Below, piece by piece: positions 417 through 62,421 of a DNA stretch of 64,000 bases. The stretch is from the IMG/VR virus record IMGVR_UViG_3300022890_000014, positions 1 through 64,000 of that record, one strand, 5' to 3'. Below the pieces are notes generated by a model, which saw only the letters and a list, made by a program, of their open reading frames with translations, was not told the DNA's origin and made no database searches. The stretch comes from a virus. The position numbers and the translations under genes are program-made. Numbering within the stretch: the first letter of the stretch is position 1; every line of letters starts with the position of its first letter.

Positions 417-433
417 TGCGTAAGGCTTACGCA
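417..433. repeat. Dispersed palindrome TGCGTAAGSCTTACGCA, copy 1
   Basis: Perfect 17-nt copy with central G on the + strand, between a promoter-like element and the 31-codon ORF at 453. Confidence 0.95.
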
Positions 434-452
434 AACAACCAAGGGGTGAATT

Positions 453-548
453 ATGGAATTCAGCTTCGAGAGATGTTCTAAAAATTATGAAGTGGTAAAT
501 GGACACAGAAGACTGGCAGAAGAAGAAAAAGTAACGATAAATAAATAG
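453..548 (+). CDS. Small hypothetical protein (31 aa)
   Basis: A 31-codon frame with a good Shine-Dalgarno (AAGGGG) about 6 nt before its ATG, placed directly after a promoter-like element and a palindrome copy, and followed by a terminator-like hairpin that includes the stop codon. The product is charged, with an EEEK stretch near the C-terminus, and matches no family I recognise. The arrangement of promoter, RBS, ORF and terminator is the reason for calling it. A short leader peptide or a non-coding transcript are alternatives. Confidence 0.45.
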   Translation: MEFSFERCSKNYEVVNGHRRLAEEEKVTINK

Positions 549-575
549 GGTGTATTAGCGCCATATCCTATTTTT
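543..575 (+). terminator. Putative intrinsic terminator
   Basis: AAATAGG pairs with CCTATTT, and the 3' arm runs into five T. The stem is AT-rich and the loop is 17 nt, so it is only moderately convincing. Confidence 0.45.
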
Positions 576-599
576 ACAACTGAGGTATAGGAGATTGTT

Positions 600-920
600 A
601 TGAGTCAGATAAAATTCACATGTCCAAATACAAGACAGCAAGTAGTATGTGGCTGGGACAGAATGACACAGACGTGTCACCTCACGGTATACGGTCATGC
701 CTTGACCGAGGATGGCGAGAACGAAATTGTCTACTGTGAACTTTGTGGTGGTACGTCTGGCATCAAGCCAATGAAGATGTATCCAACTGTGATAATCACT
801 GTGCTAAAGAATCTGAAAGTCCATATGCCAAGGGAACTGCTCAGAACACTTCAGGATCATGTAGGGTGGGATCTCGGCAACGAGATTGTTGAGTTTACCG
901 CAAAAGATCCGTTAGAGTAG
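600..920 (+). CDS. Hypothetical protein with a Cys pair
   Basis: 106 aa with a clear ribosome binding site (ATAGGAGATTGTT before the ATG). The sequence contains isolated cysteines and a CELCGG motif around residue 47 that could contribute to a small metal site, but no complete zinc-ribbon pattern is present. It lies in the row of small + strand genes at the left of the window, typical of phage early accessory genes. I do not recognise the family and assign no function. Confidence 0.75.
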   Translation: MSQIKFTCPNTRQQVVCGWDRMTQTCHLTVYGHALTEDGENEIVYCELCGGTSGIKPMKMYPTVIITVLKNLKVHMPRELLRTLQDHVGWDLGNEIVEFTAKDPLE

Positions 921-951
921 GTGTCGTAGAGAAGACTGTAAAAAATAGCAA

Positions 952-968
952 TGCGTAAGCCTTACGCA
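952..968. repeat. Dispersed palindrome, copy 2
   Basis: Perfect 17-nt copy with central C on +, 32 nt after the stop of the 106-aa gene and just before the RBS of the 24-codon ORF at 984. Confidence 0.95.
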
Positions 969-983
969 AACGGAGAAGATTCA

Positions 984-1058
984 ATGGAAGCAATAGATTC
1001 ATTGTCTGGCAAAGAAGAGATGACTTCGAGAGAATCTACAGTCATCAGAAAACAGTGA
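984..1058 (+). CDS. Small hypothetical protein (24 aa)
   Basis: A 24-codon ORF with a GGAG Shine-Dalgarno 8 nt upstream of ATG, between a palindrome copy and a strong intrinsic terminator. The product is polar and acidic, rich in Ser and Glu, with no family match. The signal placement supports translation, but so short a frame could occur by chance. Confidence 0.35.
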   Translation: MEAIDSLSGKEEMTSRESTVIRKQ

Positions 1059-1075
1059 TGGGTTGGTAGTCTCTC

Positions 1076-1113
1076 AAGGGCAGCTAGGCTTTATGTTTGG
1101 TTGCCCTTTTTTT
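1076..1113 (+). terminator. Intrinsic terminator
   Basis: AAGGGCA pairs with TGCCCTT across a 17-19 nt loop and is followed by an uninterrupted T run. It ends the first small-gene unit, and the next promoter-like element starts 10 nt later. Confidence 0.8.
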
Positions 1114-1122
1114 ATAATAAAG

Positions 1123-1184: not shown

Positions 1185-1715
1185 ATGAGTATACTAATCG
1201 GAATCATAGTGCTATGCAATCTAGTACTACTCTTCGGCATTCTGCTGAGAGTTCAAGATGTTAGAGATGAGCTAATGGAAGTGAAGGGAGAGCAGCGTAA
1301 GTACTGGAACAGCTACCTTAACTCGAATCCGAATGCTCACGAAATAAGTTTGATACCAGAAGATTACGACCTGTCAGAAGATGATATAGCTGACGCACTA
1401 AGCGAGACTGAGCAGTCTGACATGCGTAAGGCTTACGCACAGGATGAGAGTATAGGGAACCACAACGGAAGTCTATACAAGGGACTTGTTGAAAGAGACA
1501 GCAGGCTGAAGAACGCTAGGTTGAACACTTTGACTGAAAGTACAAAACTCAATTCCTGTAAAGAGATTCACGAAGAATCACTGGATGAACAAATGAGAAG
1601 AAATGGTTTTTCCGAAGAAGACATAAAGAAGATGACTGTGCTAGAAAAAGAAGACGCTCTTTTTGTGACACCACATACCGACAAGCTGGAGGTTGAAGAT
1701 GAGAATAAGTCCTAA
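1185..1715 (+). CDS. Single-pass membrane protein, unknown function
   Basis: 176 aa. Residues 3-22 form one hydrophobic segment, a likely signal anchor, followed by a long acidic soluble region (Asp/Glu-rich, no cysteine cluster). The RBS GAGGTAAAG supports the start. A full copy of the dispersed palindrome lies inside the gene at 1423-1439 and is read in frame as MRKAYA near residue 81. The last codons overlap the start of the next gene, so the two are probably translationally coupled. No family recognised. Confidence 0.75.
   Translation: MSILIGIIVLCNLVLLFGILLRVQDVRDELMEVKGEQRKYWNSYLNSNPNAHEISLIPEDYDLSEDDIADALSETEQSDMRKAYAQDESIGNHNGSLYKGLVERDSRLKNARLNTLTESTKLNSCKEIHEESLDEQMRRNGFSEEDIKKMTVLEKEDALFVTPHTDKLEVEDENKS
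1423..1439. repeat. Dispersed palindrome, copy 3 (inside a gene)
   Basis: Perfect 17-nt copy, central G on +, read in frame as RKAYA within the membrane protein of 1185-1715. Confidence 0.95.
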
Positions 1716-2277: not shown

Positions 2278-5200
2278 CTAGTAACTTCCATCTTCACCGA
2301 GTCCGAACTCGGCACCGTACATAAACCCTGGAATTGGGTTGCTACCATGTATGCTGCTCTTACCACTAGTGGCAGCAGACTCCATGATTGTTTTCTGGAT
2401 TCCCTCTTGGCCTAGAGCAGCTAACCAATCAGGCTTTACCTGTGGCAGTTGTTTCACGCCATAGAGTTCCGGCTTAATCTTCATGGGGTTTCTTTTTACC
2501 TTTATTTTTTTACCAGTGAGCTTGTCTAGATCTGACAGGCTTATCTTGTGTCCCTTGTCGAATCCATAAGCAGACTCTTCCATCTTGAATCCCACAGCAT
2601 CTTCGGCAGTCATATCAGCCACAGGATTTTTGTTTATATCGTTAGCTAATGACCAAGAAACAATGTCACCTATAGAGAACTCATCGTTTAGACCTGGATC
2701 TTCCACTACTGCTGTATTAGTAGCTCCACGCACAACGACCTCAAAGTTCTTTCTTTTTAGGCTGTTGTCCCCATAGGCGTCCTGAAGCGACTGAACTAGG
2801 AAGTTTTGGGTTGCTCTCATTCCTTGTGTCTCAAGAACATCATAGGGGTCTTTGTATCCAGTGGTAAGTGGATCTCCCTTAGTAACCTTACTTCCTTTTC
2901 TAACTATAGGCTTTTGGCCTACTGGTGTGGTGTACTTCTTTCCAGACACAACAAAGTCGAATCCACCACCAGGAGATTCTACTATCTCTTCAACAACACC
3001 AGTCTTAGCAGATAGCATTGTTTTACCAGGAAGATTCTTCGGCATTTGTGTTAGCTGTTGTATTCTCTTGAAAGAGTCAACTTCTCCGTGTCCAGTCTTA
3101 GATGGCATATCTGAAGTGTTCCAGTACACTCCTCCTGTATGAAATTTCTTCATAGCCTGCTGAGTGAGAGGCTCTCCAATTGACTGACTTGCTATAATGC
3201 CAATAGGAGATCCATTTCCATACGCCTTTCCTTCCTCGTTTGGACCGTAACACTTAGCACATATGCCTACAGCGTTTTTGCACGTCATAGGAGACCTGAC
3301 CCTCATAGTCTTTATCTTTTTCCTCTTTTTGTCTGCAACTATCTGTGGGTCAACGACTCTGTTAGTGCCAATTTCATACCTGTCAATAATCTGAGGATCT
3401 GAGACATCCATCTCAATGCCTTCTTTATCTCCACAATCTGCATTACTTATTGTCTGGTCGCCAACAGCATTAAGCATAAGCTTGTTTTGGTATCCAGGCT
3501 GGGCAGTAGACAGTGCTCTACCGATCATTCCTGCTCTTGCACCATATGAAGAGCCTATGTATTCAGAGACACTAAGTCCTTCAGAGTAACTATTTTCAAT
3601 TGGAATAGGGATAGGTGCGCCAGTATGATCTGATACTATAGTAGGACCACTTATCTGCTGCATAACAGCGCCCTTCTTACTTGTAGCTCCAGACTCAAGC
3701 CATTCATACAGGTTTGAATTCTCTTTACCAAACTTATCTATAACAGGTACAAGCTCTCTGTCAACTATTTTTAGCATCTCTTTTGACTTAGCATCTCTAG
3801 ACTTACTGTCATCACCAGAAATGTTCTTCAGTCTTTTCATGATAGCTTTTCTTTTTGGATCACTAACTGGTCGTATATCATCCATAGTCATAGTCTGATT
3901 GGATGAATATCTATCGCCTAGTTTTCTAAGAGCATCTATGATGACTGAGGCTTTAACCTTGTCTTTCTCAGCTATTGCCATTGCAAGCTTGTTGACTTCC
4001 TTCTTCTTCCAGATAGTGTTGTAGTTCCTGTTTTCTTTAGGAAGCAGGTCATTGATAAGAACTCTACCAGCAACAGTTCTTTTGCCGTTGAACATGACTG
4101 AATCTTTGTAGCTGATGTCTTTATTGTCTATGTCTTTTTTTACATCGTCTACGCTTGCGTAAGCCTTACGCAGATTCTTTCCACCACCTACAGATAGCTC
4201 ATAGATTCCAAGTTGAGCCATGTCTTGAGGAAGGTAGTTCATTATCTTTGCATCGCCTATACGAGCAGGCGTAAACAAGATATTGCTAGGCTTCATCCTG
4301 TTTGCTTCTGCTACTGCCTCTGGGGTGACAGGAACATGAATGTTCATCTGGTCCCCGTCAAAGTCAGCATTGAATCCTTTGACAATCATATTTGGTATTA
4401 GAATAGTCTTGCCTGGAGTTACTTTGGCATTAAATGCCTGAACAGAGTACTTATGTAACGACGGCGCTCTATTCAATATTACAGGTCTCTCATTCATTGC
4501 TTCCTGAAGAGCTTTGTCTACTATGTCATCCTTCTTAACATTAAGTCTCTTTAGAGAGTCTGCCATTGATAGTCCGTATGTCCCAGTCATCTTGCGAACC
4601 AAGAATGGTCTAAATATCTTCTTAGCCATCTCTTTTGGTATAGCTACCTCATCTATTCCAAGATTGGGGTCTGGAGCAATGACACCACGACCTGTTGGCT
4701 CCTGCTGCTTTCTCCACATGTTTCTCTGAATATAACCAGTCTTAGGGGAGTCTCCAGAGAGAGTGGATATAATACCTTTGGCTGGTCTTGTTAGTGCTGT
4801 AGATCCGCTAACACCGACTAGTGCTTCTAATCCCTGGTATAGACTGCCACGGAGATCCTTCTTCATCTCATCATCCATATCATCCATTTCTTTTAGCTGA
4901 TTAGATGTGAGTCCAAGGTCTCTGTAAAGATAGTTGAGAGGGGAAACTCCGAGGTCTCCACTTTGTAATCGATAAACTGGGCGCATCTGCGGAGGAAGCA
5001 CAGCGACATTCTTTGTCATGTATGCTTCTTCTGGTCTTCTGTCTGCTTTCTCTAGGCTGTTGATGTATCGAAGTGTACGGTTATTAGAGTTTCTTGTTGA
5101 ACCCTTCGATCCTTTTATCATTGATTCAGCTTCAATCTTTCTTTCAGCCAAGTCAACGTTTCTAAGAAGGTTAGTTATTCCAGGCCCACCAGTAGCAATA

Positions 5201-8200
5201 AGCGTGTTATCTGGCTCAGTTATCGTATTGATAATCCTTGTCTTGTCGTCAACACCAGGAGCCTTTGCGTAAGCCTTACGCGTGATACCAGTCATGTCTA
5301 GAAGCTGATCTTTCGAGTAAGATTCCAAATCTTCCATAACTGTGCCGTCAGCAGCAACATACTTCTTCCCAGTTACAACACTCTTGTATGTTGAGTCATT
5401 GATACCTGTTAGTTTCTTGATTGGATCTTTGAATAGTGGGTTGGGAAGTTCTTCTGGAAGAGCTATATGCGTCCATCTATCACCCTTGACCCCACCAGTC
5501 ATCTCTGGATCGAACAAACCGCCAACATGTTCTTTGAGACCCTTGCCTCTGAGCATTTTTGGATCAGTTATCTCTCCAGCACTCTGACTAAGAACATCTT
5601 TGTCTCTGATTGGCTCAGTAGAGATCATACTTCCGTTCTTGGTCATGTTGACACCAGCACCGCGAAGCATGGCATCAAACTTGTTCCATGTAAACGGAAC
5701 TTGAGGAGGAGGTGTTTGTTGACCTAGTTGTATTGCTCTCCAGAACTCATCAGATTGCTCTGCCTTATGAGTAGCCATCTCTCTAAGATTATGATTAGCA
5801 CCATGAGATAACATAGACCATGTTGACAGTGGATCGAGAGCTTTAGATCCAGTCTTGCCACCAGTTACAGGTTGTTTGTTTAGGTCATAGCCTTCACCTG
5901 GTTGTCTAGCAGAAAATCCAGATTCCCCAGTCTTAACAAGCTTCATCATGTATTGCTTGCCAGTTGTTATCTCACCCATAGACTTGCCAGTCTCAGGATC
6001 AAATAGCTCTTCGGTCTGCTTCAAGCCTGCATCTTTAAGGAGCTTCATGACGCCAGCATGGTTATCAGAAGGCTTAAAGTTTTCGACCATAATAGGCTTG
6101 CCGCCCTGCTTGTCTGCGACTTTGCCTGTTAAGGTCTCAAGTATCTGAGATGGATTCGTTCTTCCTATTACACCCATTGGGTTGAGGATAACTTCGACTG
6201 CTTCGCCGTTTTTGAACTGAGGCATCTTTGAATCAGGAACTATGGCAGAAATGACGCCTTTATTTCCGTGGCGACCTGAGTTTCCAGACCAGTGACATTT
6301 TCCATTTCTTCTTGTATATAGTATATGGTTTTTTTCTAGCCTAACGCAATAAATCTCATCTTCATAGTATACATACGATTCTTTTTGCCCACTCTGATTC
6401 TTTGAATGTCCATGATTTATTGTGGGGTTATTTTTGAATCTATATACGTATACGTTAAAGCAATCTTTCCATCCATTTTCATACACGGTCTTTTTTATAT
6501 TACTTGCCATGCCAATATGCAAGGTTAGTCTTTGAAAGTCGTCAGCTAATTGCTTAGATGTAGTGCAATATGAATGACCAGTAGATGTCTCAGATCCATC
6601 TCCCCACATCATCCATCTGTATAGAATTTTCAGATATTTTTTATCTAAAGAGAATATCCAGTTTGGTATAAATTTTTGATCGCATAGTCCGAACTGAGAG
6701 AAATACTCTTGAAGTTGGCGTCCGTAAAATATATACCTGGTGTCATTAGAGCATGGAGTCATGCCCCAGAAATCCAATTCTTCTTCAAATAGGATTCTTG
6801 TATGAGGTTTAACTTGGTGTATTACTATCCCGAAGTTTCCCCTTTTTTCATCTTTAAAACAATTTCCTTCTGCAAGATATGCTCCTAGAATGAACATGAA
6901 TTGCTCCATCTCCATATCTATACTTGGCAGTCTACGTGTTCCGTTTTCGCTCTGTCCTGCCCTAACAGTAATGTCTTCATCTATTGAGAAGTAGTCTATG
7001 TCTTCACCAACCCAATTAGAGGCGTTATTTTGAAGTCTATACCTCTTTCCCTTGAGTTGATATGCCTCAGTAAGAGAGTGGTTTTTCGCCCCTCTTCTTT
7101 TTGCAAATACACTATGATTCTCAGTAACAGACATCGACACTTGAGTTGTCTCAACTCTATACATATTTCCAGCATGAGGATAAGCATATGCCTTGTCTAC
7201 AGGTACATACTCAAGGGTGTCTGTTTCTGCATGAAGTGACGCAACTCTATCCTTGGTTGTTACATCAGCTACGTTTTTCCAGCCACCTATGGTTAGAATT
7301 TCATGCTCTTTGTCAAAACAAAGTTTGTCGCCTACCTCAAGTTGCTTAGTTACCTTGATTTGTACCTTGTATTGTCTTGTGTTCTCAACAACATCCATAA
7401 CCTCACCAGGAGATTCATACTCCCATTTTATAGATGCATCCTTCTGAGGCTTTACTAATCCTCTACCAAGCTTCTTCAGAATTCTATCTTCACTAGTATC
7501 TTCAGATAAACGCATGGCTGCGAAGATTGGATCTCCGTAATTGAGAATTTGTCCTTTCTTCACAACACCATTAGCACTAAGCTTTGCAGACTGAGCATTA
7601 GTAATAGAGCCAGGAAATGCTGCCCCATACTTATCTCTGTCATAAATAAAATCGTCACCCTTTGGTGATTTCTCTTCTATCATTTGCTGATGGGTCATCT
7701 TTTTCTGGTAGCCTTCGCTAACCTTGATCCCATCTTCCATTGTGCTACCATCACCAGCCATGTAAGCAACGCTAGTGTTGAGACCTAATGCAAGTACTCC
7801 ATTTTTGGTAAAGTTTAGATCTCCAATGAGACCATTCTTCTCAACCTTGTCTCCAACTTCAACATTAGGAGTGTGATGAAAGAACGACTTTTCATTGAGC
7901 TTGAAGTTATTGTACAGCGGTACTGTTTTGATTCCATCTTTACCGGATATATCAACAGAGTCTTTACCAACTCTTTTTACTATACCTTTTATTGGTGATG
8001 TAGCAGAGAAAGCTCTACCTACTGAACTCTCTACAGTTTCTCCGCTACCAAAGGATGACTGAACAAGTGGAACTTCTGGTTTTAGAACAGGAGTTGTTTG
8101 CTCTGTATGCTTTGATGCAAGAAACGCCCTTCCTCCTGACATAGAATCTAGGAAAGGTACTTGTGCTGTAGCAAACGTAAACACGGACTGCTCAGAAGGT

Positions 8201-9840
8201 ATGATAAAATCTACTTCCGATATTGGAACAATCTTGTCTACACCTTTATGCTGAACCTTTACTTTGCCTTTATGCTTTCCTTTTACTTCTACTTTCTTAC
8301 CACCACCATCTGGGGTGAAATATTGAGAGGTTGTGGCATCTCTAAAGATTATCTTTCCGTCTTCAACCTTGAACTGATCAGGATAAGCAATCTTTTTGTC
8401 GTGAGACTGCACGGCTGATAATTGAACTGGCTTCATGGTTTTATGATTGATGTAGACGCTAGTTAACTCGTTGCCTCTTTTCTCAGCACCGATAGTTAAA
8501 TAGTTTACAGCACCAATCTTTGCAGACTCAGGGGTCTTGATTGGGTCTAGTTTTCCAAGCTCACTAGGATGCAGAGACCTAGCTTCCGTCTTAACCATAT
8601 CTAGGCTACCAAGAGCACCTTCGCCCATGATAGTAGTCTTGTACTGCTCATTGATAAGCTGAATAGGATTGTGTTGCTCTGAACGTTCAGATATAGCAAG
8701 GGAGTTGAAGATACCCTCGGTTAGTTTCTTTATGTGGGGAACAGCTAGAATATCTCTAACCTTATCCTTGCTGTCAATTGCTCTCTTCATTCTAGAAGCA
8801 AGCATCTTCCTGTTGACTTGGAATCTTTCCTTGAAGATGTCCTCTGCTGAATGCACACTTTTAAACATTAGGTTGTCTCTATCGTCAACCTTTTCTCTAC
8901 CTTGTTGTGTTGCTATCAGTCGAGATGAAGCATCCATCAGAGCGCCACTCTCAAGCTTTGCGTAAGGCTTACGCAGTGTGAGCTTTGTCATCTCTGGGTC
9001 AAGAGAGGTGGTGTCGAAGTGCTCGTTCAGCCTTTCGACAGCCTCTTCTTTTGTAATATCAGCAGGAGTGTCGAGGAACTTGTTGCTGAACTTAACTACG
9101 CTCTGGGCTGTCTTTCTTCCGTGAAGAGCTTTGTTAGCATCAGCTACTTCTTTTCCCCAAGACTCAGATATTTCTTCATGACTATGACCCATGCCAATTA
9201 GAACTGGATACAGTGGTATGTTGCTACTTCCAACTTGGATAAGAACGTTTCCTTTCTTATCGTCCATGTGGACTTCCATCTTTCTCCCTCTACCGCCAGC
9301 ACCTAAGTTGATCTGGGTTTTCGGAAGTCCGTTGGCTTGGTTTACCGTGTACACACCTGGCTTGAGTCTAAACTGAGTAGGGAGGTTCCACTCTGAACCT
9401 TTGACAATAAAGGTCTGCCTAGTAGTAAGCTTAGGAAGATCCATAAGCTTGACTTTCTTAGTGGTGTTAATAGTCTTTCCAGTTTCTTTATCTATAAGAG
9501 AGACTTCTCCATAGACTGGAACACCATAGGTTTTATCTTCTAGCTTAGTCTTTTTTTGAAGAGAGTAGTCGTTAGCAGATTTGTTGTCGTCTACCCATAC
9601 CTTATGAAGCTTAAGGGTGTGCTTCTCTCCTTCGACTGGAAAGACAGATGATATTCCTTCTACTGCACTAACCTTAATCTTCTCGAACTGATCGCGGGTA
9701 TCAGTGACATTTCCGTCTTCGACATCTTCAGTGTTATTTTTCTTTGCTTGTTTCTCAAGATAGGACACAAGCGTTTCGTCTCCTCCCCAATCTAGGAATG
9801 AGTAAGACGGGCTTGGGTGCCCATTGCTATATATCGACAT
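2278..9840 (-). CDS. Fused RNA polymerase beta-beta' subunit with intein
   Basis: About 2520 aa. The N-terminal part is RpoB-like, with GDKL and GRHGNKG (about residues 1189-1195) flanking an intein, and a beta C-terminal block (LDPLSTWSMLSHGANHNLREM-type). It continues without a stop into an RpoC-like part: a VLPPQMRPVYRL segment, the catalytic NADFDGDQ motif at about 1824-1831 with its three Asp, a C-x-C-x2-C-type cluster, and the bridge-helix/trigger-loop block IASQSIGEPLTQQ. The N-terminal beta' zinc-binding cysteines are not apparent. The ATG at 9840 (GGAG 8 nt upstream) is preferred to a TTG at 9861. Three palindrome copies lie inside the gene. Multisubunit polymerases are known in phiKZ-like jumbo phages, usually as split subunits; one fused chain is unusual. 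The sigma-like factor at 51815 is a possible partner (inference). Confidence 0.93.
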   Translation of the reverse strand: MSIYSNGHPSPSYSFLDWGGDETLVSYLEKQAKKNNTEDVEDGNVTDTRDQFEKIKVSAVEGISSVFPVEGEKHTLKLHKVWVDDNKSANDYSLQKKTKLEDKTYGVPVYGEVSLIDKETGKTINTTKKVKLMDLPKLTTRQTFIVKGSEWNLPTQFRLKPGVYTVNQANGLPKTQINLGAGGRGRKMEVHMDDKKGNVLIQVGSSNIPLYPVLIGMGHSHEEISESWGKEVADANKALHGRKTAQSVVKFSNKFLDTPADITKEEAVERLNEHFDTTSLDPEMTKLTLRKPYAKLESGALMDASSRLIATQQGREKVDDRDNLMFKSVHSAEDIFKERFQVNRKMLASRMKRAIDSKDKVRDILAVPHIKKLTEGIFNSLAISERSEQHNPIQLINEQYKTTIMGEGALGSLDMVKTEARSLHPSELGKLDPIKTPESAKIGAVNYLTIGAEKRGNELTSVYINHKTMKPVQLSAVQSHDKKIAYPDQFKVEDGKIIFRDATTSQYFTPDGGGKKVEVKGKHKGKVKVQHKGVDKIVPISEVDFIIPSEQSVFTFATAQVPFLDSMSGGRAFLASKHTEQTTPVLKPEVPLVQSSFGSGETVESSVGRAFSATSPIKGIVKRVGKDSVDISGKDGIKTVPLYNNFKLNEKSFFHHTPNVEVGDKVEKNGLIGDLNFTKNGVLALGLNTSVAYMAGDGSTMEDGIKVSEGYQKKMTHQQMIEEKSPKGDDFIYDRDKYGAAFPGSITNAQSAKLSANGVVKKGQILNYGDPIFAAMRLSEDTSEDRILKKLGRGLVKPQKDASIKWEYESPGEVMDVVENTRQYKVQIKVTKQLEVGDKLCFDKEHEILTIGGWKNVADVTTKDRVASLHAETDTLEYVPVDKAYAYPHAGNMYRVETTQVSMSVTENHSVFAKRRGAKNHSLTEAYQLKGKRYRLQNNASNWVGEDIDYFSIDEDITVRAGQSENGTRRLPSIDMEMEQFMFILGAYLAEGNCFKDEKRGNFGIVIHQVKPHTRILFEEELDFWGMTPCSNDTRYIFYGRQLQEYFSQFGLCDQKFIPNWIFSLDKKYLKILYRWMMWGDGSETSTGHSYCTTSKQLADDFQRLTLHIGMASNIKKTVYENGWKDCFNVYVYRFKNNPTINHGHSKNQSGQKESYVYYEDEIYCVRLEKNHILYTRRNGKCHWSGNSGRHGNKGVISAIVPDSKMPQFKNGEAVEVILNPMGVIGRTNPSQILETLTGKVADKQGGKPIMVENFKPSDNHAGVMKLLKDAGLKQTEELFDPETGKSMGEITTGKQYMMKLVKTGESGFSARQPGEGYDLNKQPVTGGKTGSKALDPLSTWSMLSHGANHNLREMATHKAEQSDEFWRAIQLGQQTPPPQVPFTWNKFDAMLRGAGVNMTKNGSMISTEPIRDKDVLSQSAGEITDPKMLRGKGLKEHVGGLFDPEMTGGVKGDRWTHIALPEELPNPLFKDPIKKLTGINDSTYKSVVTGKKYVAADGTVMEDLESYSKDQLLDMTGITRKAYAKAPGVDDKTRIINTITEPDNTLIATGGPGITNLLRNVDLAERKIEAESMIKGSKGSTRNSNNRTLRYINSLEKADRRPEEAYMTKNVAVLPPQMRPVYRLQSGDLGVSPLNYLYRDLGLTSNQLKEMDDMDDEMKKDLRGSLYQGLEALVGVSGSTALTRPAKGIISTLSGDSPKTGYIQRNMWRKQQEPTGRGVIAPDPNLGIDEVAIPKEMAKKIFRPFLVRKMTGTYGLSMADSLKRLNVKKDDIVDKALQEAMNERPVILNRAPSLHKYSVQAFNAKVTPGKTILIPNMIVKGFNADFDGDQMNIHVPVTPEAVAEANRMKPSNILFTPARIGDAKIMNYLPQDMAQLGIYELSVGGGKNLRKAYASVDDVKKDIDNKDISYKDSVMFNGKRTVAGRVLINDLLPKENRNYNTIWKKKEVNKLAMAIAEKDKVKASVIIDALRKLGDRYSSNQTMTMDDIRPVSDPKRKAIMKRLKNISGDDSKSRDAKSKEMLKIVDRELVPVIDKFGKENSNLYEWLESGATSKKGAVMQQISGPTIVSDHTGAPIPIPIENSYSEGLSVSEYIGSSYGARAGMIGRALSTAQPGYQNKLMLNAVGDQTISNADCGDKEGIEMDVSDPQIIDRYEIGTNRVVDPQIVADKKRKKIKTMRVRSPMTCKNAVGICAKCYGPNEEGKAYGNGSPIGIIASQSIGEPLTQQAMKKFHTGGVYWNTSDMPSKTGHGEVDSFKRIQQLTQMPKNLPGKTMLSAKTGVVEEIVESPGGGFDFVVSGKKYTTPVGQKPIVRKGSKVTKGDPLTTGYKDPYDVLETQGMRATQNFLVQSLQDAYGDNSLKRKNFEVVVRGATNTAVVEDPGLNDEFSIGDIVSWSLANDINKNPVADMTAEDAVGFKMEESAYGFDKGHKISLSDLDKLTGKKIKVKRNPMKIKPELYGVKQLPQVKPDWLAALGQEGIQKTIMESAATSGKSSIHGSNPIPGFMYGAEFGLGEDGSY
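4156..4172. repeat. Dispersed palindrome, copy 4 (inside RNAP gene)
   Basis: Perfect 17-nt copy, central C on +, read in frame as LRKAYAS in the beta' part. Confidence 0.95.
5276..5291. repeat. Dispersed palindrome, copy 5 (inside RNAP gene)
   Basis: 16 of 17 positions match (last base G instead of A); read as TRKAYAK in the RNAP chain. Confidence 0.95.
6280..7320 (-). other. Intein with LAGLIDADG endonuclease domain
   Basis: A 347-residue insertion (about residues 841-1187) splits the conserved beta motif between GDKL and GRHGNKG. It starts with Cys in a block A-type sequence (CFDKEHEIL) and ends ...HWSGN before a Ser +1 residue. Two LAGLIDADG-like motifs are seen (ILGAYLAEGN and LYRWMMWGDGS). 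The penultimate residue is Gly instead of the usual His. Splicing should restore the polymerase with one extra Ser at the junction. No copy of the dispersed palindrome lies inside the intein. Confidence 0.9.
8959..8975. repeat. Dispersed palindrome, copy 6 (inside RNAP gene)
   Basis: Perfect 17-nt copy, central G on +, read as LRKPYAK in the beta part. Confidence 0.95.
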
Positions 9841-10344: not shown

Positions 10345-10361
10345 TGCGTAAGGCTTACGCA
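10345..10361. repeat. Dispersed palindrome, copy 7
   Basis: Perfect 17-nt copy, central G on +, in the convergent gap about 20 nt beyond the stop of the - strand gene at 10380. Confidence 0.95.
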
Positions 10362-11716: not shown

Positions 11717-11733
11717 TGCGTAAGGCTTACGCA
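11717..11733. repeat. Dispersed palindrome, copy 8
   Basis: Perfect 17-nt copy, central G on +, between two divergent promoter-like elements. Confidence 0.95.
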
Positions 11734-13347: not shown

Positions 13348-13364
13348 TGCGTAAGGCTTACGCA
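13348..13364. repeat. Dispersed palindrome, copy 9
   Basis: Perfect 17-nt copy, central G on +; its last bases overlap the end of the helicase gene and it directly precedes the RBS of the gene starting at 13336. Confidence 0.95.
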
Positions 13365-14883: not shown

Positions 14884-14900
14884 TGCGTAAGGCTTACGCA
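14884..14900. repeat. Dispersed palindrome, copy 10
   Basis: Perfect 17-nt copy, central G on +, immediately upstream of the helicase RBS. A second, shortened copy follows at 14912. Confidence 0.95.
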
Positions 14901-14911
14901 TCCATCTGAAT

Positions 14912-14926
14912 ACGTAAGCCTTACGG
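14912..14926. repeat. Truncated palindrome copy
   Basis: CGTAAGCCTTACG core (13 bp) is intact but the outer bases have diverged; it lies 11 nt from copy 10, in the gap after the portal gene. Confidence 0.8.
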
Positions 14927-14933
14927 TTACTAA

Positions 14934-16891: not shown

Positions 16892-16908
16892 TGCGTAAGG
16901 CTTACGCA
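16892..16908. repeat. Dispersed palindrome, copy 11
   Basis: Perfect 17-nt copy, central G on +, overlapping the last codons of the gene at 16902 and preceding the portal RBS. Confidence 0.95.
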
Positions 16909-22724: not shown

Positions 22725-22741
22725 TGCGTAAGCCTTACGCA
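22725..22741. repeat. Dispersed palindrome, copy 14
   Basis: Perfect 17-nt copy, central C on +, 1 nt after the stop of 21917-22723 and just before the RBS of the next gene. Confidence 0.95.
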
Positions 22742-22754: not shown

Positions 22755-23450
22755 ATGCCATTTGATGTCTTTGAACACCACAAACTATTCTTGTTCGATG
22801 AGCTAAACGATACAGCTAAAGAGGCTGCCATCATGGAGTATCGGTACGACTTTCAGGATTTCGATTTCCTTATGTATAATGATTGGTTCTTCAACTTTTC
22901 TGAAGATGAATGGAAGTCTGTCATGTCGGAAATCAGAATGCCTGAAGACACTGTTCAGCCTGAACGAATACTCAAATGGGACAGAATCTCATCAGCATCC
23001 ATGATGGTTCCATCTATGGAACTTAAGGGAGTAAGTATTGATGGTGATGCCCTGGAAATGTTCTATAAGATCATAGGCATACATGGCACTGTTTTGGCCG
23101 ACGACAGTGTATCGGAAATTAAATTTGTATCAAATGTGTTTAGAAATTCGGCCACGAATATTGAATTTGAGCTAGATGATTATGACTTTACAGAAGATAA
23201 AGTTGAGCAAATCGAGAAACTTAAAAGATCTGCTAAGGTAAAGTTTGAAGAGCATTTCATGCTTAGGGCTGCAAGAGCTATGAGGGATAGCTATGATGAT
23301 ATGACTAGTGATGAGTATGTTGCTAACGAACTCATAGAAAGAGAGATTGTGTTCTATGTGGATGGATGCGTCGGAAACTTCAAATGGGACACAAAAGAGT
23401 TGATAGAAACAACCAAGATAACTAAGATAGAGGATCTAGAGGTAATGTAA
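22755..23450 (+). CDS. Hypothetical protein, FDEL-x-D-x-AK N-terminal type
   Basis: 231 aa from the ATG at 22755 (GGAGAT 6 nt upstream; the longer frame would start inside the previous gene and read through the palindrome). The N-terminus LFLFDELNDTAKEAA resembles a motif common at the start of many phage proteins of unknown function. The rest is acidic with repeated Asp/Glu clusters. It ends in a TAATG overlap with the HTH gene, so the pair is probably co-expressed. Confidence 0.7.
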   Translation: MPFDVFEHHKLFLFDELNDTAKEAAIMEYRYDFQDFDFLMYNDWFFNFSEDEWKSVMSEIRMPEDTVQPERILKWDRISSASMMVPSMELKGVSIDGDALEMFYKIIGIHGTVLADDSVSEIKFVSNVFRNSATNIEFELDDYDFTEDKVEQIEKLKRSAKVKFEEHFMLRAARAMRDSYDDMTSDEYVANELIEREIVFYVDGCVGNFKWDTKELIETTKITKIEDLEVM

Positions 23451-24805: not shown

Positions 24806-24822
24806 TGCGTAAGCCTTACGCA
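24806..24822. repeat. Dispersed palindrome, copy 15
   Basis: Perfect 17-nt copy, central C on +, between the secreted protein gene and the spanin-like gene. Confidence 0.95.
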
Positions 24823-26107: not shown

Positions 26108-26123
26108 TGCGTAAGGCTTACGC
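26108..26123. repeat. Dispersed palindrome, copy 16
   Basis: 16-nt copy (final A replaced by G), overlapping the stop-codon region of the gene at 26118. Confidence 0.93.
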
Positions 26124-38402: not shown

Positions 38403-38418
38403 TGCGTAAGGCTTACGC
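38403..38418. repeat. Dispersed palindrome, copy 23
   Basis: 16-nt copy, central G on +, abutting the RBS (AAGGAT) of the 1440-aa fibre gene; its last bases contribute to the RBS context. Confidence 0.93.
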
Positions 38419-38437
38419 GTCCTGGTTAGGATTGTGT

Positions 38438-39975: not shown

Positions 39976-39992
39976 TGCGTAAGGCTTACGCA
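39976..39992. repeat. Dispersed palindrome, copy 24
   Basis: Perfect 17-nt copy, central G on +, between the 209-aa gene and the 505-aa gene. Confidence 0.95.
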
Positions 39993-40717: not shown

Positions 40718-40734
40718 TGCGTAAGGCTTACGCA
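40718..40734. repeat. Dispersed palindrome, copy 25
   Basis: Perfect 17-nt copy, central G on +, 2 nt beyond the stop of the 1206-aa gene. Confidence 0.95.
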
Positions 40735-44370: not shown

Positions 44371-44387
44371 TGCGTAAGCCTTACGCA
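44371..44387. repeat. Dispersed palindrome, copy 27
   Basis: Perfect 17-nt copy, central C on +, immediately after the stop of the baseplate J-like gene. Confidence 0.95.
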
Positions 44388-46218: not shown

Positions 46219-46235
46219 TGCGTAAGGCTTACGCA
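46219..46235. repeat. Dispersed palindrome, copy 28
   Basis: Perfect 17-nt copy, central G on +, between the gp25-like gene and the baseplate J-like gene; overlaps the end of the former. Confidence 0.95.
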
Positions 46236-48786: not shown

Positions 48787-49671
48787 TTAGTATATCTTCA
48801 TTCTATTTGCGCATCTTATGTTTAGTATGGATTTATGATTTGGATTAACACCTGGCCTTGGGTGTCTCTCATCTTCTTCAGGGGGAACACCGAGCATTTC
48901 GTTGTAAAACATAGATTCATTATGTAAAGAAGGAAGTTTACCAGATGCATGCGCATCTATTGATAACTTGTAGTGAGGTTTTGGATACGGATCTATATAA
49001 GAAATATCCTCCCATGCTTTCCAGCACAAAAGGTCTTTATCATTATCAGCACCTTTTATAAACAGAGACTCCTCTCTTTTGCCAAGTCTCCACCAATCAT
49101 TAATAAAGAATTCTTTTACAGGATCTTTCTTTCTTAATGATTTAGCCAACATTTCTTTTACTTCGTCGCCAGTGTATCCCCAAGGAACACCTATGCCGAA
49201 CTTGTTGCCTATTGATATAGTGTCTATAAGTGGCGAGCCTTTCCATGCCTGCATGCCCATAGACTTAGTTTCAGTTGAAGTTTTAAATCTAAGAACCTGA
49301 ACCATTAACTCTCTGTGGGATTCATTTAGTTTTTCACTACTAACTAGACCGAGACTATGCATTGACACCATGCTTGCGTAGTTAAGTGTGGTAGTGGTTA
49401 AGTTTTGCATCCTTGCAATGTCTGCATCTGAATGATTAGTCTTGCAAATCTTATCTAGCCACACACTACTGGAGTTGCGCTCACCACCCTCGAAATATTC
49501 AAACTCGCTTCCGTTAATCATTTCTTTTTTCTTAGAATTTTCCACTTTGCTACCTATGAAGTTAGACATAGTTTCTTGTTCTCTAACTACCTGGCTTTCA
49601 TATTTCTCTCGGTTTTCAGGATTAAAGAAGTATGTTGTGCTTGCGTAAGGCTTACGCATTCCATCAGACAT
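48787..49671 (-). CDS. Hypothetical protein
   Basis: 294 aa with a strong RBS (AGGAG, 6 nt). The palindrome lies inside the gene at codons 5-10 and is read as MRKPYA. The rest is mixed alpha/beta, rich in Glu/Lys and Trp, with no recognised motif. It sits between the tRNA-like genes and the baseplate operon. No function can be given. Confidence 0.65.
   Translation of the reverse strand: MSDGMRKPYASTTYFFNPENREKYESQVVREQETMSNFIGSKVENSKKKEMINGSEFEYFEGGERNSSSVWLDKICKTNHSDADIARMQNLTTTTLNYASMVSMHSLGLVSSEKLNESHRELMVQVLRFKTSTETKSMGMQAWKGSPLIDTISIGNKFGIGVPWGYTGDEVKEMLAKSLRKKDPVKEFFINDWWRLGKREESLFIKGADNDKDLLCWKAWEDISYIDPYPKPHYKLSIDAHASGKLPSLHNESMFYNEMLGVPPEEDERHPRPGVNPNHKSILNIRCANRMKIY
49642..49658. 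repeat. Dispersed palindrome, copy 30 (inside a gene start)
   Basis: Perfect 17-nt copy, central G on +, read as MRKPYA near the N-terminus of the 294-aa protein. Confidence 0.95.
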
Positions 49672-51345: not shown

Positions 51346-51362
51346 TGCGTAAGGCTTACGCA
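51346..51362. repeat. Dispersed palindrome, copy 31
   Basis: Perfect 17-nt copy, central G on +, between the TK promoter-like element and its RBS. Confidence 0.95.
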
Positions 51363-51816: not shown

Positions 51817-52855
51817 AGTACATAACTTTTCCTGCATCCAGTATGTCTTTTATCTCTGATGCAATAAACCTGTGCTCTTTTCTCACCTCTGCTTCACTTA
51901 TGCCTAGTCTATTAGATATTTCCTTCACTCCATCGAGAGTTTCTTTTCCCTCGAAGTCATCAAAAGTATGTTCCATAACTAGTTGCTGCTTCGGTGTTGC
52001 ACTGTGATACGTAGTAAAAAGAGCTTCAACTGCTGGGTCTGTGTTGCTTGCACCTATCGGACCTAGGTTGTCATCAAGCACCAAGTCTTGTCTTAGCTCC
52101 TGATCTATGGCTTTTAGGTCAGATATTTTCCATCCAAGTTCTTGACGCAGTTCTTGAATTGTGGGGTCTCGATTCTTTTTATCTTTTAGTAGTTCGTATG
52201 CGTTCTGATATACGCCTACTTTAGCTGCCCTTGGTTCAGGTATACTTCCCACGTTCTGATATTTATACCCATACCTGTGAATCTTAGACAGTTGATGCCA
52301 AACATGAGTGTTAAGTGCCGCACCCTTGTTTGGGTTATATGTGTTTATTCCGTGCCTAAGCAGTCTCATTCCTTCTGCTTCTACAGCAGATTTTGGGAGA
52401 GGAGAGTTCTTGACCCAAGGACGAACCCTGCTTCGTACAAGAGGAGTGAAGGAATGCATAAGCTTCCTAAGTGCTCTCTTGTCACCAGTCTTGTTGTACG
52501 ACTTCCAGAGTTCCATCTCTTCATCTTTAGACATACTTGCAGCAGTTTTAATTAGGGAAGGATAGATGCTGTCTTCAATAATGCACTTACCGTTAGCTTC
52601 CTTAGTAAACTCGCATAAAGCCCAATCCTTAGAGGAGTCACCAAGAAACCGTGTGTTCTCATCACACACAACTCTTCCACCATCGAATAGCTCCGAGGCA
52701 AGTTTCATTGTGTGCGTAAGGCTTACGCGGTCACTGCTCCACACCACAAGAGCGCCCTTGCTTGTATCTTCAGGTAGATACATTGCAGACTTCTCTATGC
52801 CGTCCTCTTCTGTCACAAGAAGACCAGCAGTGTGTTTATTCATATATGTATTCAT
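51815..52855 (-). CDS. Sigma-70-like transcription factor
   Basis: 346 aa from the ATG at 52855 (GAGGG 6 nt upstream; the longer frame overlaps the upstream gene). A sigma region 2-like block is visible at about residues 120-190 (YNKTGDKRALRKLMHSFTPL, then GMRLLRHGINTYNP and LSKIHRYGY), a region 3-like helix set (DPTIQELRQELG) and a C-terminal region 4-like helix-turn-helix (GVKEISNRLGISEAEVRKEHR). The N-terminal 90 residues are an extension; a palindrome copy inside is read as VSLTH. It may direct the phage polymerase at 2278 or the host RNAP to phage promoters; which one is inference. Confidence 0.72.
   Translation of the reverse strand: MNTYMNKHTAGLLVTEEDGIEKSAMYLPEDTSKGALVVWSSDRVSLTHTMKLASELFDGGRVVCDENTRFLGDSSKDWALCEFTKEANGKCIIEDSIYPSLIKTAASMSKDEEMELWKSYNKTGDKRALRKLMHSFTPLVRSRVRPWVKNSPLPKSAVEAEGMRLLRHGINTYNPNKGAALNTHVWHQLSKIHRYGYKYQNVGSIPEPRAAKVGVYQNAYELLKDKKNRDPTIQELRQELGWKISDLKAIDQELRQDLVLDDNLGPIGASNTDPAVEALFTTYHSATPKQQLVMEHTFDDFEGKETLDGVKEISNRLGISEAEVRKEHRFIASEIKDILDAGKVMY
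52713..52728. repeat. Dispersed palindrome, copy 32 (inside a gene)
   Basis: 16-nt copy, central G on +, read as RVSLTH in the sigma-like protein. Confidence 0.93.
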
Positions 52856-55787: not shown

Positions 55788-55804
55788 TGCGTAAGCCTTA
55801 CGCA
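55788..55804. repeat. Dispersed palindrome, copy 33
   Basis: Perfect 17-nt copy, central C on +, just upstream of the RBS of the NlpC/P60 gene. Confidence 0.95.
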
Positions 55805-56955: not shown

Positions 56956-56972
56956 TGCGTAAGGCTTACGCA
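56956..56972. repeat. Dispersed palindrome, copy 34
   Basis: Perfect 17-nt copy, central G on +, between the tape measure and the tail-tip gene. Confidence 0.95.
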
Positions 56973-60578: not shown

Positions 60579-60588
60579 TCAATCTACA

Positions 60589-60605
60589 TGCGTAAGCCTT
60601 ACGCA
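60589..60605. repeat. Dispersed palindrome, copy 35
   Basis: Perfect 17-nt copy, central C on +, overlapping the end of the gene at 60599 and preceding the tape measure gene. Confidence 0.95.
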
Positions 60606-60937
60606 TTCCTTTTTTTGGTTGGGATTTTTCTTTTTCTTAGCCCTTGATTTCTAGGCTTTGCGGCAGGAGTTATAGTGATTGGTCCGGCTTTTGCCTGAGT
60701 CTCAACCAACTTTCTTGTAGCAGCGTCTTTCTTTTGCTGGTCTCTATTAGCTCTTGGACTAGCAAACTTTATGTACTCTTTCTGAGCTTCCCTTATGTTC
60801 TCTGATGACACTCCAGTACTAGAAGCAGATGCGACAAATACAGCATGTGATATTTTCTCATTCTGTAAATCGCTTAATGCCCTGTGTGCAAGCTCTTCCA
60901 TAAGGGTTCCTGGGACAACTGGGCCATACGTCCCCAT
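60599..60937 (-). CDS. Small basic protein next to tape measure
   Basis: 112 aa with a helical N-terminal half (GTLMEELAHRALSDLQNEK) and a strongly basic, Pro-containing C-terminus (RKRKIPTKKRNA). It has the position of a tape-measure chaperone or tail-assembly factor between the 278-aa gene and the tape measure. No RBS of note, so the exact start is provisional. Confidence 0.6.
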   Translation of the reverse strand: MGTYGPVVPGTLMEELAHRALSDLQNEKISHAVFVASASSTGVSSENIREAQKEYIKFASPRANRDQQKKDAATRKLVETQAKAGPITITPAAKPRNQGLRKRKIPTKKRNA

Positions 60938-60978
60938 TAGAACTAGCCTAGATACAGACCACCCTTCAGGGGACTCTA

Positions 60979-61815
60979 TCAGTTTTTTATTTTTTCTTCC
61001 GTATCAATCTTATTCTCAATGCTTCTCTCAAGTAGAGATTGCTTGGAACTAAGCCTGACAAGCATTTGTTGCCCAAGGTTGTTCATTCTCTTCAGTTTTT
61101 TATTGAACGCTTCAACTACTTCTGCACTATTCTCTTTACTACTGGGGGTGCCCATATCTTTGCCATCTAGCCTTGTGAGACTAAACACCATTTGAAATAG
61201 CGATTGTTTATTAGAGTAGTCGTTGGAGTTGGCTACGACACCAGCTTCAACAAGCTCCGCTATCCGTTCGTTAATATATGAGATTTCTCCACCATCAAGA
61301 CTCTGCCACGTAGTTCCGATTCTTCCTACTGGAATATCCTTAATTATCTTTCCACCGACCATGTATGACAAGATCTCACCATCAGTAATTTCAATCATAG
61401 ACTTGTCTTCTAGTAGAGTTCCGCAGTGTTTGCATAACACAGAGCCGTCTTCTAGTTTCTCAAGTGGATTGTTTTCATCTTCCTTGTCGTCTTCTTCAGC
61501 AAAGATACTTGGTATTCCTTCAGGTGAATTGATTTTATTGTCAGCAACAGTGCTAACCATTCCGTCTAAACCGAAGCCTACATCGCCACCATCCAAAGAC
61601 ACGGTTTCTGGAGTATGCATTTCTCCATAATCAGTGTCTTTTTCGTACTGACTACCGCCTCTTGCTGGCTGCATTCTGCTTTGGTCTTGCCCAATAGCCT
61701 CGCCGATTCTGCTAGCAAGACCCTCAGAATGCTCACTCATCTTTTCTGACATCTCAGCTATCTTCTTACTACTTAGAAAGCTGGAACCTGGAAGATTACT
61801 GTTACTATTTCCCAT
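60979..61815 (-). CDS. Hypothetical acidic protein with a zinc knuckle
   Basis: 278 aa, acidic, helical at both ends. A CKHCG pair around residue 133 could be half of a zinc site, but no second pair is visible. It is the first gene of the tape-measure operon and has an extended -10 promoter just upstream. Tail-assembly chaperone or scaffold is plausible from position; not shown. Confidence 0.65.
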   Translation of the reverse strand: MGNSNSNLPGSSFLSSKKIAEMSEKMSEHSEGLASRIGEAIGQDQSRMQPARGGSQYEKDTDYGEMHTPETVSLDGGDVGFGLDGMVSTVADNKINSPEGIPSIFAEEDDKEDENNPLEKLEDGSVLCKHCGTLLEDKSMIEITDGEILSYMVGGKIIKDIPVGRIGTTWQSLDGGEISYINERIAELVEAGVVANSNDYSNKQSLFQMVFSLTRLDGKDMGTPSSKENSAEVVEAFNKKLKRMNNLGQQMLVRLSSKQSLLERSIENKIDTEEKIKN

Positions 61816-61835
61816 AACTAGACTCTCCTTAATTT

Positions 61836-61850
61836 GGTAACATTATATCA
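61836..61850 (-). promoter_or_regulatory. Extended -10 promoter
   Basis: - strand TGATATAATGTTACC: TG-A-TATAAT upstream of the tail operon starting at 61815. Confidence 0.6.
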
Positions 61851-61857
61851 TATATAG

Positions 61858-61876
61858 TGGTATAATATATATAGAG
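61858..61876 (+). promoter_or_regulatory. Phage promoter, GGTATAAT-N5-TAGAG class
   Basis: GTGGTATAAT then TAGAG after five bases; divergent from the tail promoter, drives the 61914 unit. Confidence 0.62.
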
Positions 61877-61913
61877 GAAGAAATAATTCTAACATAATAA
61901 GGGGTGTTTATCA

Positions 61914-62411
61914 ATGGCTGCAAATTACAAGGAATTACTATCCAGTGTGTACACAGTCTGGGAAGGAATTGACGAACTAACTGGAATGTTCTTTAGTGGA
62001 GTATCTGGCCTTAGCGAGTGCCATGAAGATAATGATGAGCTAAAAAAAGTATGGAGACTCATATTTGGGCATGGTGATTATAATGGGCTGGTGAATGAGT
62101 ACGAAGATGCCTACATGTCGTGGCCTAAGCCGGTAAACAAGGGCACTAGAATAGACCGTGTGCGCAACTACAACCTTAGATTAGATCAGTCCTACGAGCG
62201 ACTACAGGATATGATCGAGACTATGCACTACCTATCAAATACAGTGGTTCTGGATATAGTTGGAGACTATGACTGGCACGAAAGCATTAACAGTGCAATT
62301 ACTATCCTTGTTGACTCGCTACATGAGAGGTTGTGCAGACCTGATAACGAAACTATCTTCCGTGTCAAGAGAAAATACAAGAAACTAATGAATGAATTGG
62401 GTGTCGCGTAA
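61914..62411 (+). CDS. Hypothetical protein upstream of sliding clamp
   Basis: 165 aa, helical, with Trp/Tyr-rich N-terminal half and a basic C-terminus; no recognised motif. AAGGGGTG 7 nt upstream supports the start. The stop codon TAA lies inside a palindrome copy (GCG-TAA), so the repeat forms the end of this gene. First gene of the + strand replication unit. Confidence 0.7.
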   Translation: MAANYKELLSSVYTVWEGIDELTGMFFSGVSGLSECHEDNDELKKVWRLIFGHGDYNGLVNEYEDAYMSWPKPVNKGTRIDRVRNYNLRLDQSYERLQDMIETMHYLSNTVVLDIVGDYDWHESINSAITILVDSLHERLCRPDNETIFRVKRKYKKLMNELGVA

Positions 62412-62421
62412 GGCTTACGCA
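62405..62421. repeat. Dispersed palindrome, copy 36 (contains a stop codon)
   Basis: 16 of 17 positions match, central G on +. The third reading frame of the palindrome contains TAA, used here as the stop of the preceding gene; the RBS of the clamp gene follows. Confidence 0.93.

What the first reader, a model, noticed from the sequence alone, without database searches (positions are those of the whole stretch)
417..62421. A 17-bp palindrome dispersed over the whole window
TGCGTAAG(G/C)CTTACGCA is present in about 36 near-identical copies in 64 kb, where none would be expected by chance. Most copies are in intergenic gaps just upstream of a Shine-Dalgarno or just after a stop codon. The longest genes carry copies inside them (RNAP, 1440-aa fibre, 1206-aa baseplate protein), so spacing never exceeds about 3.7 kb. 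In RNA it can fold as a 7-bp triloop hairpin (TGCGTAA-GSC-TTACGCA), but the absence of a T run argues against termination. Operators or insulators for a phage DNA-binding protein, a genome-organising or packaging site, an RNA processing hairpin, or a selfish nano-repeat are possible. Dispersed sites such as mycobacteriophage stoperators and start-associated sequences are partial precedents.
Basis: partly seen in the sequence, partly recalled or inferred. Interest (0 to 1): 0.88.

Follow-up and report, generated by a model that had tools for sequence, protein, structure and literature searches.

The report
Evenly spaced palindromes across phage genome
A 150-kb bacterial virus carries about 87 copies of one 17-letter DNA palindrome, spaced far more evenly than chance and placed inside genes where a gap would otherwise be too long, so they are probably docking sites for a virus-made DNA-binding protein along the whole genome.

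Summary
Confirmed, and larger than reported. The window belongs to a 150,744-bp phage record with 54 exact and 87 near-exact (up to 3 mismatches) copies of TGCGTAAGSCTTACGCA, where about 0.25 are expected. 71 of 87 are intergenic although 84% of the genome is coding. Spacing is strikingly regular (CV 0.48 against 0.98 random; maximum 3,693 bp), also when gene boundaries are controlled for: in-gene copies fill what would be long gaps. One in-gene copy in the RNA polymerase arose by substitution, not insertion. The centre is G or C, about 50:50 on the coding strand, which fits symmetric duplex recognition; but the 5' half-site (coding sense) decays 22:1 more often than the 3' half, so function is coupled to transcription direction. 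RNA pairing is not preserved. The phage encodes a divergent ParB-family HTH protein (544 aa), an attractive but unproven reader. 59 of 60 loci with related RNA polymerases lack such arrays; one has a different dispersed 16-bp palindrome. Best reading: a genome-wide array of protein-binding sites acting as roadblock, insulator or organiser, resembling KorB/Noc sites or stoperators but regularly spaced. Reader and function need experiments.

The parts
417..433 (.). palindrome copy, exact, intergenic
952..968 (.). palindrome copy, exact, intergenic
1423..1439 (.). palindrome copy, exact, inside predicted ORF 1185-1715
4156..4172 (.). palindrome copy, exact, inside RNA polymerase gene
5266..5282 (.). 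palindrome copy, 1 mismatch, inside RNA polymerase gene
8959..8975 (.). palindrome copy, exact, inside RNA polymerase gene; arose by substitution (LGKPYT-like to LRKPYA, no gap in 60 homologues)
10345..10361 (.). palindrome copy, exact, intergenic (convergent)
11717..11733 (.). palindrome copy, exact, intergenic, 16 bp upstream of a GTATAAG promoter-like box on the + strand
13348..13364 (.). palindrome copy, exact, overlaps upstream stop codon and lies 11 nt before a start
14884..14900 (.). palindrome copy, exact, one of a 27-bp-spaced doublet
14911..14927 (.). degenerate palindrome copy (3 mismatches), second of doublet
16892..16908 (.). palindrome copy, exact, overlaps stop codon
19604..19620 (.). 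palindrome copy, exact, overlaps stop codon
21566..21582 (.). palindrome copy, exact, 9 bp upstream of a GTATAAG box
22725..22741 (.). palindrome copy, exact, intergenic
24806..24822 (.). palindrome copy, exact, intergenic
26108..26124 (.). palindrome copy, 1 mismatch (5' arm in coding sense)
27302..27318 (.). palindrome copy, exact, intergenic
29034..29050 (.). palindrome copy, exact, intergenic; degenerate partner (4 mm) at 29060
30455..30471 (.). palindrome copy, exact, intergenic
34019..34035 (.). palindrome copy, 1 mismatch, doublet with 34047
34047..34063 (.). palindrome copy, exact
36636..36652 (.). palindrome copy, exact, inside 1440-aa gene
38403..38419 (.). palindrome copy, 1 mismatch
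39976..39992 (.). palindrome copy, exact
40718..40734 (.). palindrome copy, exact
42454..42470 (.). palindrome copy, 1 mismatch, inside 1206-aa gene
44371..44387 (.). palindrome copy, exact
46219..46235 (.). palindrome copy, exact, overlaps stop codon
48699..48715 (.). palindrome copy, 2 mismatches
49642..49658 (.). palindrome copy, exact, inside start of a 294-aa gene
51346..51362 (.). palindrome copy, exact
52713..52729 (.). palindrome copy, 1 mismatch, inside gene
55788..55804 (.). palindrome copy, exact
56956..56972 (.). palindrome copy, exact
60589..60605 (.). palindrome copy, exact, overlaps stop codon
62405..62421 (.). palindrome copy, 1 mismatch, overlaps stop codon, 11 nt before start
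23450..23794 (+). 114-aa protein with weak Cro/CI-type HTH (alternative candidate reader; the leading candidate, the ParB-like protein, lies outside the window at record positions 81986-83620, + strand)
   Evidence: phrog_2439 E 5.5e-4, phrog_8 E 7.9e-4; for the ParB-like protein

Best explanation
The 17-mer is a double-stranded DNA recognition site for a dimeric, phage-encoded helix-turn-helix protein, most plausibly the divergent ParB-family protein at record positions 81986-83620 (outside the window). Selection keeps a site at least every 3.7 kb (mean 1.73 kb) along the whole 150-kb genome, so that bound protein covers or organises the genome and meets elongating RNA polymerase at regular intervals, as a roadblock, insulator or organiser. 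Shown: number, spacing, gap filling inside genes, origin by substitution in one gene, directional decay of the 5' half-site, existence of the ParB-like gene. Inferred: that a protein binds the site, that this protein does, and what the binding does.
For: 87 copies where about 0.25 are expected. Spacing CV 0.48 and maximum 3,693 bp; never reached in 5000 trials of each of five nulls, including random choice of gene junctions (mean CV 0.88) and randomising only the in-gene copies (mean CV 0.73, mean maximum 7.4 kb). The in-gene copy at 8959 sits in a conserved RNAP segment aligned without gaps to 60 homologues, so it was made by point changes. The inner 13 bp are symmetric and nearly invariant, and the central base is G or C in all but one co-directional or in-gene copy, about 50:50 on the coding strand (38 C, 31 G, 1 T): the same base pair in either orientation, as expected for a dimer on duplex DNA. 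KorB's OB oligo likewise has a central G between inverted arms (PMC11790492). Palindromes lie within 40 bp upstream of the phage's GTATAAG promoter-like box 9 times against 2.2 expected, 0 of 3000. The ParB-like protein is supported by TIGR00180 E 2e-8, phrog_6218 E 5.6e-11 and PDB Spo0J 1vz0 E 1.8e-6, with the HTH aligned. Of 29 related or comparison records only one, the 176,864-bp contig of L048, has a ParB-like match, and that genome too carries repeated palindromes (16 copies clustered at its ends, plus two sites with the bacterial parS consensus). In two other related phages (about 73% DNA identity) a different 16-bp palindrome is fully conserved at an orthologous position within diverged flanks.
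Against: No binding data. The ParB-like match covers only about 100 residues, scores below the curated TIGR00180 cut-off (34 against 58 bits), PF02195 gives no hit, and residues aligned with the ParB ENxQR motif are not conserved. No ParA-type ATPase was found. The strong 5'/3' arm asymmetry in coding sense (22:1 sites) is not predicted by simple symmetric binding and needs the added assumption that the function involves encounter with transcription. Other DNA-binding candidates exist (114-aa HTH at 23450; 284-aa winged-helix protein at record 130695; both weak). The ParB/palindrome association rests on two genomes. Structure prediction failed (pLDDT 47 and 36).
Confidence: 0.42

Rival explanations
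1. Stoperator-type silencing: a classical HTH repressor (for example the 114-aa HTH protein at 23450-23794) binds all copies to block stray transcription and give superinfection immunity.
For: Density (1 per 1.7 kb) equals that of Bxb1 stoperators (1 per 1.4-1.6 kb); mostly intergenic; coupled to transcription direction as stoperators are (PMC3029335; here 22:1 arm asymmetry); enriched beside promoter-like boxes.
Against: No tyrosine integrase found (serine integrases were not searched); Bxb1 stoperators are not evenly spaced (CV 0.91-1.03, P 0.43-0.72) whereas these are; stoperators are asymmetric 13-mers, these have a symmetric core; the HTH assignment is weak.
Confidence: 0.2
2. RNA-level element: the transcript's CGUAAGSCUUACGCA is recognised by a phage factor for antitermination or processing, renewed every couple of kilobases.
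For: Strong dependence on coding strand: 22 copies with more mismatches in the 5' arm against 1 in the 3' arm, seen on both genomic strands (6:0 and 16:1) and away from starts (10:1); position before the Shine-Dalgarno in many short gaps; hairpin predicted.
Against: Altered stem pairs are mostly broken (26 broken, 5 still pairing); the central base is G or C in either orientation, almost never A or U; cleavage inside long essential genes would be harmful; copies also lie just upstream of promoter-like boxes, outside the transcript started there; no U tract.
Confidence: 0.2
3. Single-stranded DNA hairpin used as a lagging-strand priming site; spacing resembles Okazaki fragment length and the phage has a primase-helicase.
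For: Mean spacing 1.73 kb, maximum 3.7 kb; DNA hairpin predicted; primase-type protein at record 74640-77867.
Against: Asymmetry follows gene direction, which flips several times, rather than one fork direction; stem pairs not preserved; four phages with distantly related primases have no dispersed palindrome.
Confidence: 0.07
4. Selfish nano-repeat or REP-like element spread by a transposase.
For: Exact 17-bp unit without flanking homology, many copies.
Against: An in-gene copy arose by substitution, not insertion; copies avoid each other (5 gaps under 500 bp against 11.7 expected) and fill gaps in long genes. RAYT transposases were not searched for.
Confidence: 0.04

Closest known systems
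KorB-OB system of plasmid RK2 (ParB-family CTPase clamp repressor)
   Same: Palindromic operator with central G/C between inverted arms (OB oligo GGGATATTTTAGCGGCTAAAAGGA, PMC11790492); several dispersed sites; ParB-type protein acting on transcription at a distance.
   Different: Far more sites here (87 against about a dozen, from memory); the ParB-like protein lacks the ENxQR motif residues, and no ParA partner was found (KorA was not searched); here sites are regularly spaced and also inside genes.
Noc / NBS nucleoid occlusion sites of Bacillus
   Same: ParB paralogue with many dispersed palindromic sites over a whole replicon (from memory).
   Different: Phage genome, density about 1 per 1.7 kb instead of tens of kilobases, different sequence.
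Mycobacteriophage L5/Bxb1 stoperators
   Same: Dispersed, mostly intergenic, similar density, coupled to transcription direction (PMC3029335).
   Different: Bxb1 sites are asymmetric, 13 bp, and randomly spaced (CV 0.91-1.03); here palindromic and evenly spaced (CV 0.48), with gap-filling copies inside genes.
Start-associated sequences of cluster K mycobacteriophages
   Same: Repeated short motif near starts (from memory).
   Different: Copies here also lie at stops, inside genes and upstream of promoter-like boxes.
TetR-type operators in Actinobacteria
   Same: The identical 17-mer lies in apparently intergenic DNA of several actinobacteria; in the one read in detail (L085, Streptomyces) the flanking genes look like a TetR-type regulator and an ABC transporter.
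   Different: Single regulatory sites, not arrays; no TetR protein found in this phage.

Membership tests
ParB/KorB/Noc family protein with parS-like sites | Sequence homology to the ParB N-terminal/HTH region | tested here: inconclusive
   TIGR00180 E 2.2e-8 but 34.1 bits against cut-off 58.45; phrog_6218 E 5.6e-11; 1vz0 E 1.8e-6; PF02195 no hit
ParB/KorB/Noc family protein with parS-like sites | CTP-binding motifs (GERR and ENxQR) | tested here: not met
   GERR is GHRR (RR kept); residues aligned with ENLQR read LGMQQ (alignment); motif roles from general knowledge
ParB/KorB/Noc family protein with parS-like sites | Palindromic 13-16-bp cognate sites bound specifically by the protein | not testable with these tools
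   Palindrome present; binding needs experiment
ParABS partition system | ParA ATPase partner | tested here: not met
   PF13614 no match in the record
L5-type stoperators | Many dispersed, mostly intergenic copies of one site | tested here: met
   87 copies, 71 intergenic
L5-type stoperators | Asymmetric site in one orientation relative to transcription | tested here: not met
   Symmetric inner 13 bp; only the outer positions decay directionally
L5-type stoperators | Temperate phage with HTH repressor and integrase | tested here: inconclusive
   Tyrosine integrase PF00589 absent; serine integrase not searched; weak HTH protein at 23450
REP/RAYT mobile palindromes | Copies arise by insertion | tested here: not met
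   RNAP copy at 8959 aligned without gap to 60 homologues; tested clearly at one site only
REP/RAYT mobile palindromes | Y1 (RAYT) transposase | not tested
   No search made
Functional RNA hairpin | Base pairing preserved through compensatory or wobble changes | tested here: not met
   5 altered pairs still pair, 26 broken, mostly the terminal pair

The most novel reading that the evidence does not exclude
A phage whose entire genome is under selection to hold a protein-loading site at least every 3.7 kb, in both coding and non-coding DNA: a viral chromatin-like scaffold or insulator system built on a ParB-derived protein without ParA and probably without the CTP switch, with other phages of the same RNA-polymerase lineage using different palindromes for the same purpose.
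Probability: 0.28. Interest if true: 0.92.

Novelty: new variant of a known kind. Interest (0 to 1): 0.74.

Why it matters
Regular spacing of a protein site along a whole viral genome, maintained by rewriting coding sequence where needed, would be direct evidence that phage DNA is organised by sequence at kilobase scale during infection. It gives a clear experimental handle (one 17-bp site, one leading candidate protein) on how large phages manage transcription, topology or packaging of their own DNA, and suggests that related phages evolve different site sequences for the same purpose.

Tried and rejected
Near relatives: none in phage records by megablast (first 25 kb). Of 60 IMG/VR loci encoding related RNAPs, one (L021) has its own dispersed palindrome; most loci show only 5-30 kb of their contig, so sparse arrays could be missed. 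Primase link: four phages with related primases have none. ParB-like relatives: Gordonia phage Bowser and MT836198 show no dispersed palindrome; IMG/VR searches with the ParB-like protein found no relatives. Winged-helix protein at 130695: no phage relatives. AlphaFold without homologues failed, so no fold search was made. Relatives cannot be drawn for a virus record. The L5 genome was not held, so Bxb1 served as the stoperator control.
Full report
What is there. The window is the first 64,000 bases of a 150,744-bp virus record. TGCGTAAGSCTTACGCA occurs 36 times in the window with at most two mismatches (28 exact), and 54 exact or 87 near-exact (up to 3 mismatches) times in the whole record, against 0.25 expected with up to three mismatches from first-order Markov simulations. 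Copies share no flanking sequence beyond Shine-Dalgarno and stop codons. Isolated half-sites are rare: CTTACGCA occurs 8 times outside the palindromes.

Where copies lie. With genes from my own caller (139 genes, 84% coding), 71 copies are intergenic and 16 are inside genes. Of 54 copies between co-directional genes, 15 overlap the upstream stop codon by 7 bases, supplying the TAA, and about half lie 9-22 nt before a start. In the longer gaps they are as near stops as starts, so closeness to the Shine-Dalgarno mostly reflects small gaps.

Spacing. Mean 1,726 bp, CV 0.48, maximum 3,693 bp; random placement gives CV 0.98 and maximum about 8.6 kb. The regularity survives stricter nulls: sites drawn from real gene junctions plus random coding positions (CV 0.88), only junctions randomised (0.74) and only in-gene copies randomised (0.73, maximum 7.4 kb); the observed CV and maximum were never reached in 5000 trials of each. 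Most in-gene copies therefore sit where intergenic spacing alone would leave long gaps, for example three in the 7.5-kb RNA polymerase gene.

Origin of in-gene copies. At 8959, inside the fused beta/beta' RNA polymerase, 60 homologues align without gaps; TLGKPYTK-like residues became TLRKPYAK. The copy arose by substitution. The other two RNAP copies are in poorly alignable segments, and the 121605 copy aligns without gap in two of three homologues. This speaks against insertion of a mobile unit, though it is clear for one site only.

Symmetry and direction. The inner 13 positions are almost invariant. The centre is G or C with near-equal use on the coding strand (38 C, 31 G, 1 T over co-directional and in-gene copies), as expected if the same base pair is read from either side. 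Outer positions are not symmetric: in coding orientation 22 copies have more mismatches in the 5' arm and one in the 3' arm (sign test 5.7e-6), seen also for copies more than 16 nt from a start (10:1) and on both genomic strands (6:0 and 16:1). In-gene avoidance of Cys in one reading frame may add to this but cannot explain the intergenic copies. The site is thus coupled to transcription direction. Base-pairing is not what is kept: of 31 altered stem pairs 26 are broken.

Promoters. A box (T)TGGTATAAG recurs in intergenic DNA here, and matching repeats occur in RNAP relatives; I take it for the phage's promoter element. Nine of 28 intergenic GTATAAG boxes have a palindrome within 40 bp upstream, against 2.2 expected (0 of 3000); spacings vary from 2 to 18 bp, so the palindrome is not a fixed promoter element.

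Candidate reader. The genome encodes a 544-aa ParB-like protein at record positions 81986-83620, matching Spo0J/ParB structures over the GxRR and HTH region (1vz0 E 1.8e-6). It is divergent: the match is below the curated TIGR00180 cut-off, PF02195 does not hit, the ENxQR-equivalent residues are changed, the C-terminal half is charged and predicted as long helices, and no ParA was found. A copy ends 21 nt before its start. Weak HTH proteins at 23450 and 130695 are alternatives. AlphaFold on single sequences gave no usable model of the ParB-like region.

Relatives. Sixty IMG/VR loci encode relatives of the RNAP; none carries this palindrome as an array. One (L021, 27-kb contig) has GCGAAACCGGTTTCGC four times in 27 kb, and an 8.9-kb contig from the same metagenome has it twice, spacing 4.8-7.4 kb. 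Their DNA is about 73% identical, and at one clearly alignable position the palindrome is fully conserved while flanks diverge. A second pair (8778 and 19134) lies in similarly placed small genes but did not align directly. The half-sites GCGTAAG and GCGAAAC look alike; this may be chance. Of 29 records searched for the ParB-like family only the contig of L048 matched; it has 16 copies of AATGGCCATGGCCATT clustered at its ends and two TGTTTCACGTGAAACA sites identical to the bacterial parS consensus. Two genomes are too few to prove a link.

Comparison with known systems. Stoperators of Bxb1, scanned the same way, are strongly oriented but not evenly spaced (32-36 sites, CV 0.91-1.03; definition in PMC3029335). 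KorB of RK2 is a ParB-family protein with a palindromic operator with central G/C, repressing at long range (PMC11790492). The present array shares features of both and differs in regular spacing and gap filling. Searches of the open literature held here found no description of the sequence or of such an array; most subscription journals are not held.

Conclusion. The array is real, under selection for spacing, and coupled to transcription direction. The most economical reading is a genome-wide set of duplex DNA sites for a phage protein that organises the genome or obstructs transcription, with the ParB-like protein as leading candidate (0.42). Stoperator-type silencing and an RNA-level element (0.2 each) remain open because of the directional arm decay.

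Noticed in passing
window 2278-9861 (-): Single 2,527-aa fused beta/beta' RNA polymerase with an insertion of about 350 aa (LAGLIDADG_3 match, E 7.4e-7) right before the conserved GRHGNKG segment, with intein-like ends (C...N|S): a probable intein in a phage RNA polymerase.
   Followed up: partly
record 74640-77867 (L008:10640-13867): 1,075-aa primase-helicase with MCM P-loop and weak archaeal/eukaryotic primase large-subunit matches; distant relatives in Bacillus, Microbacterium and Arthrobacter phages.
   Followed up: partly
L048 contig (G024) 149764, 157693 and both ends: Two exact TGTTTCACGTGAAACA (bacterial parS consensus) sites in a 177-kb phage with a ParB-like gene, plus 16 clustered copies of AATGGCCATGGCCATT near both contig ends.
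   Followed up: partly
G004 and G005 contigs (L021, L115): Different 16-bp palindrome GCGAAACCGGTTTCGC dispersed every 4.8-7.4 kb.
   Followed up: partly
L085, L096, L095, L097, L103 and other actinobacterial loci: The identical 17-mer, often with a related palindrome next to it, in apparently intergenic positions; L085 lies between an ABC-transporter-like and a TetR-like gene: probable regulator operator.
   Followed up: no
L122 (Microbacterium phage Krampus): GGGAAAGGACCCC in about 8-9 copies, resembling start-associated sequences.
   Followed up: no
record ends (1-60 and 150685-150744): Both ends read like the same type of short coding repeat (GCAGACCTTCG...), suggesting the contig is cut inside a pentapeptide-repeat-like gene and may be circularly permuted; a similar 72-bp promoter region occurs near both ends.
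   Followed up: no
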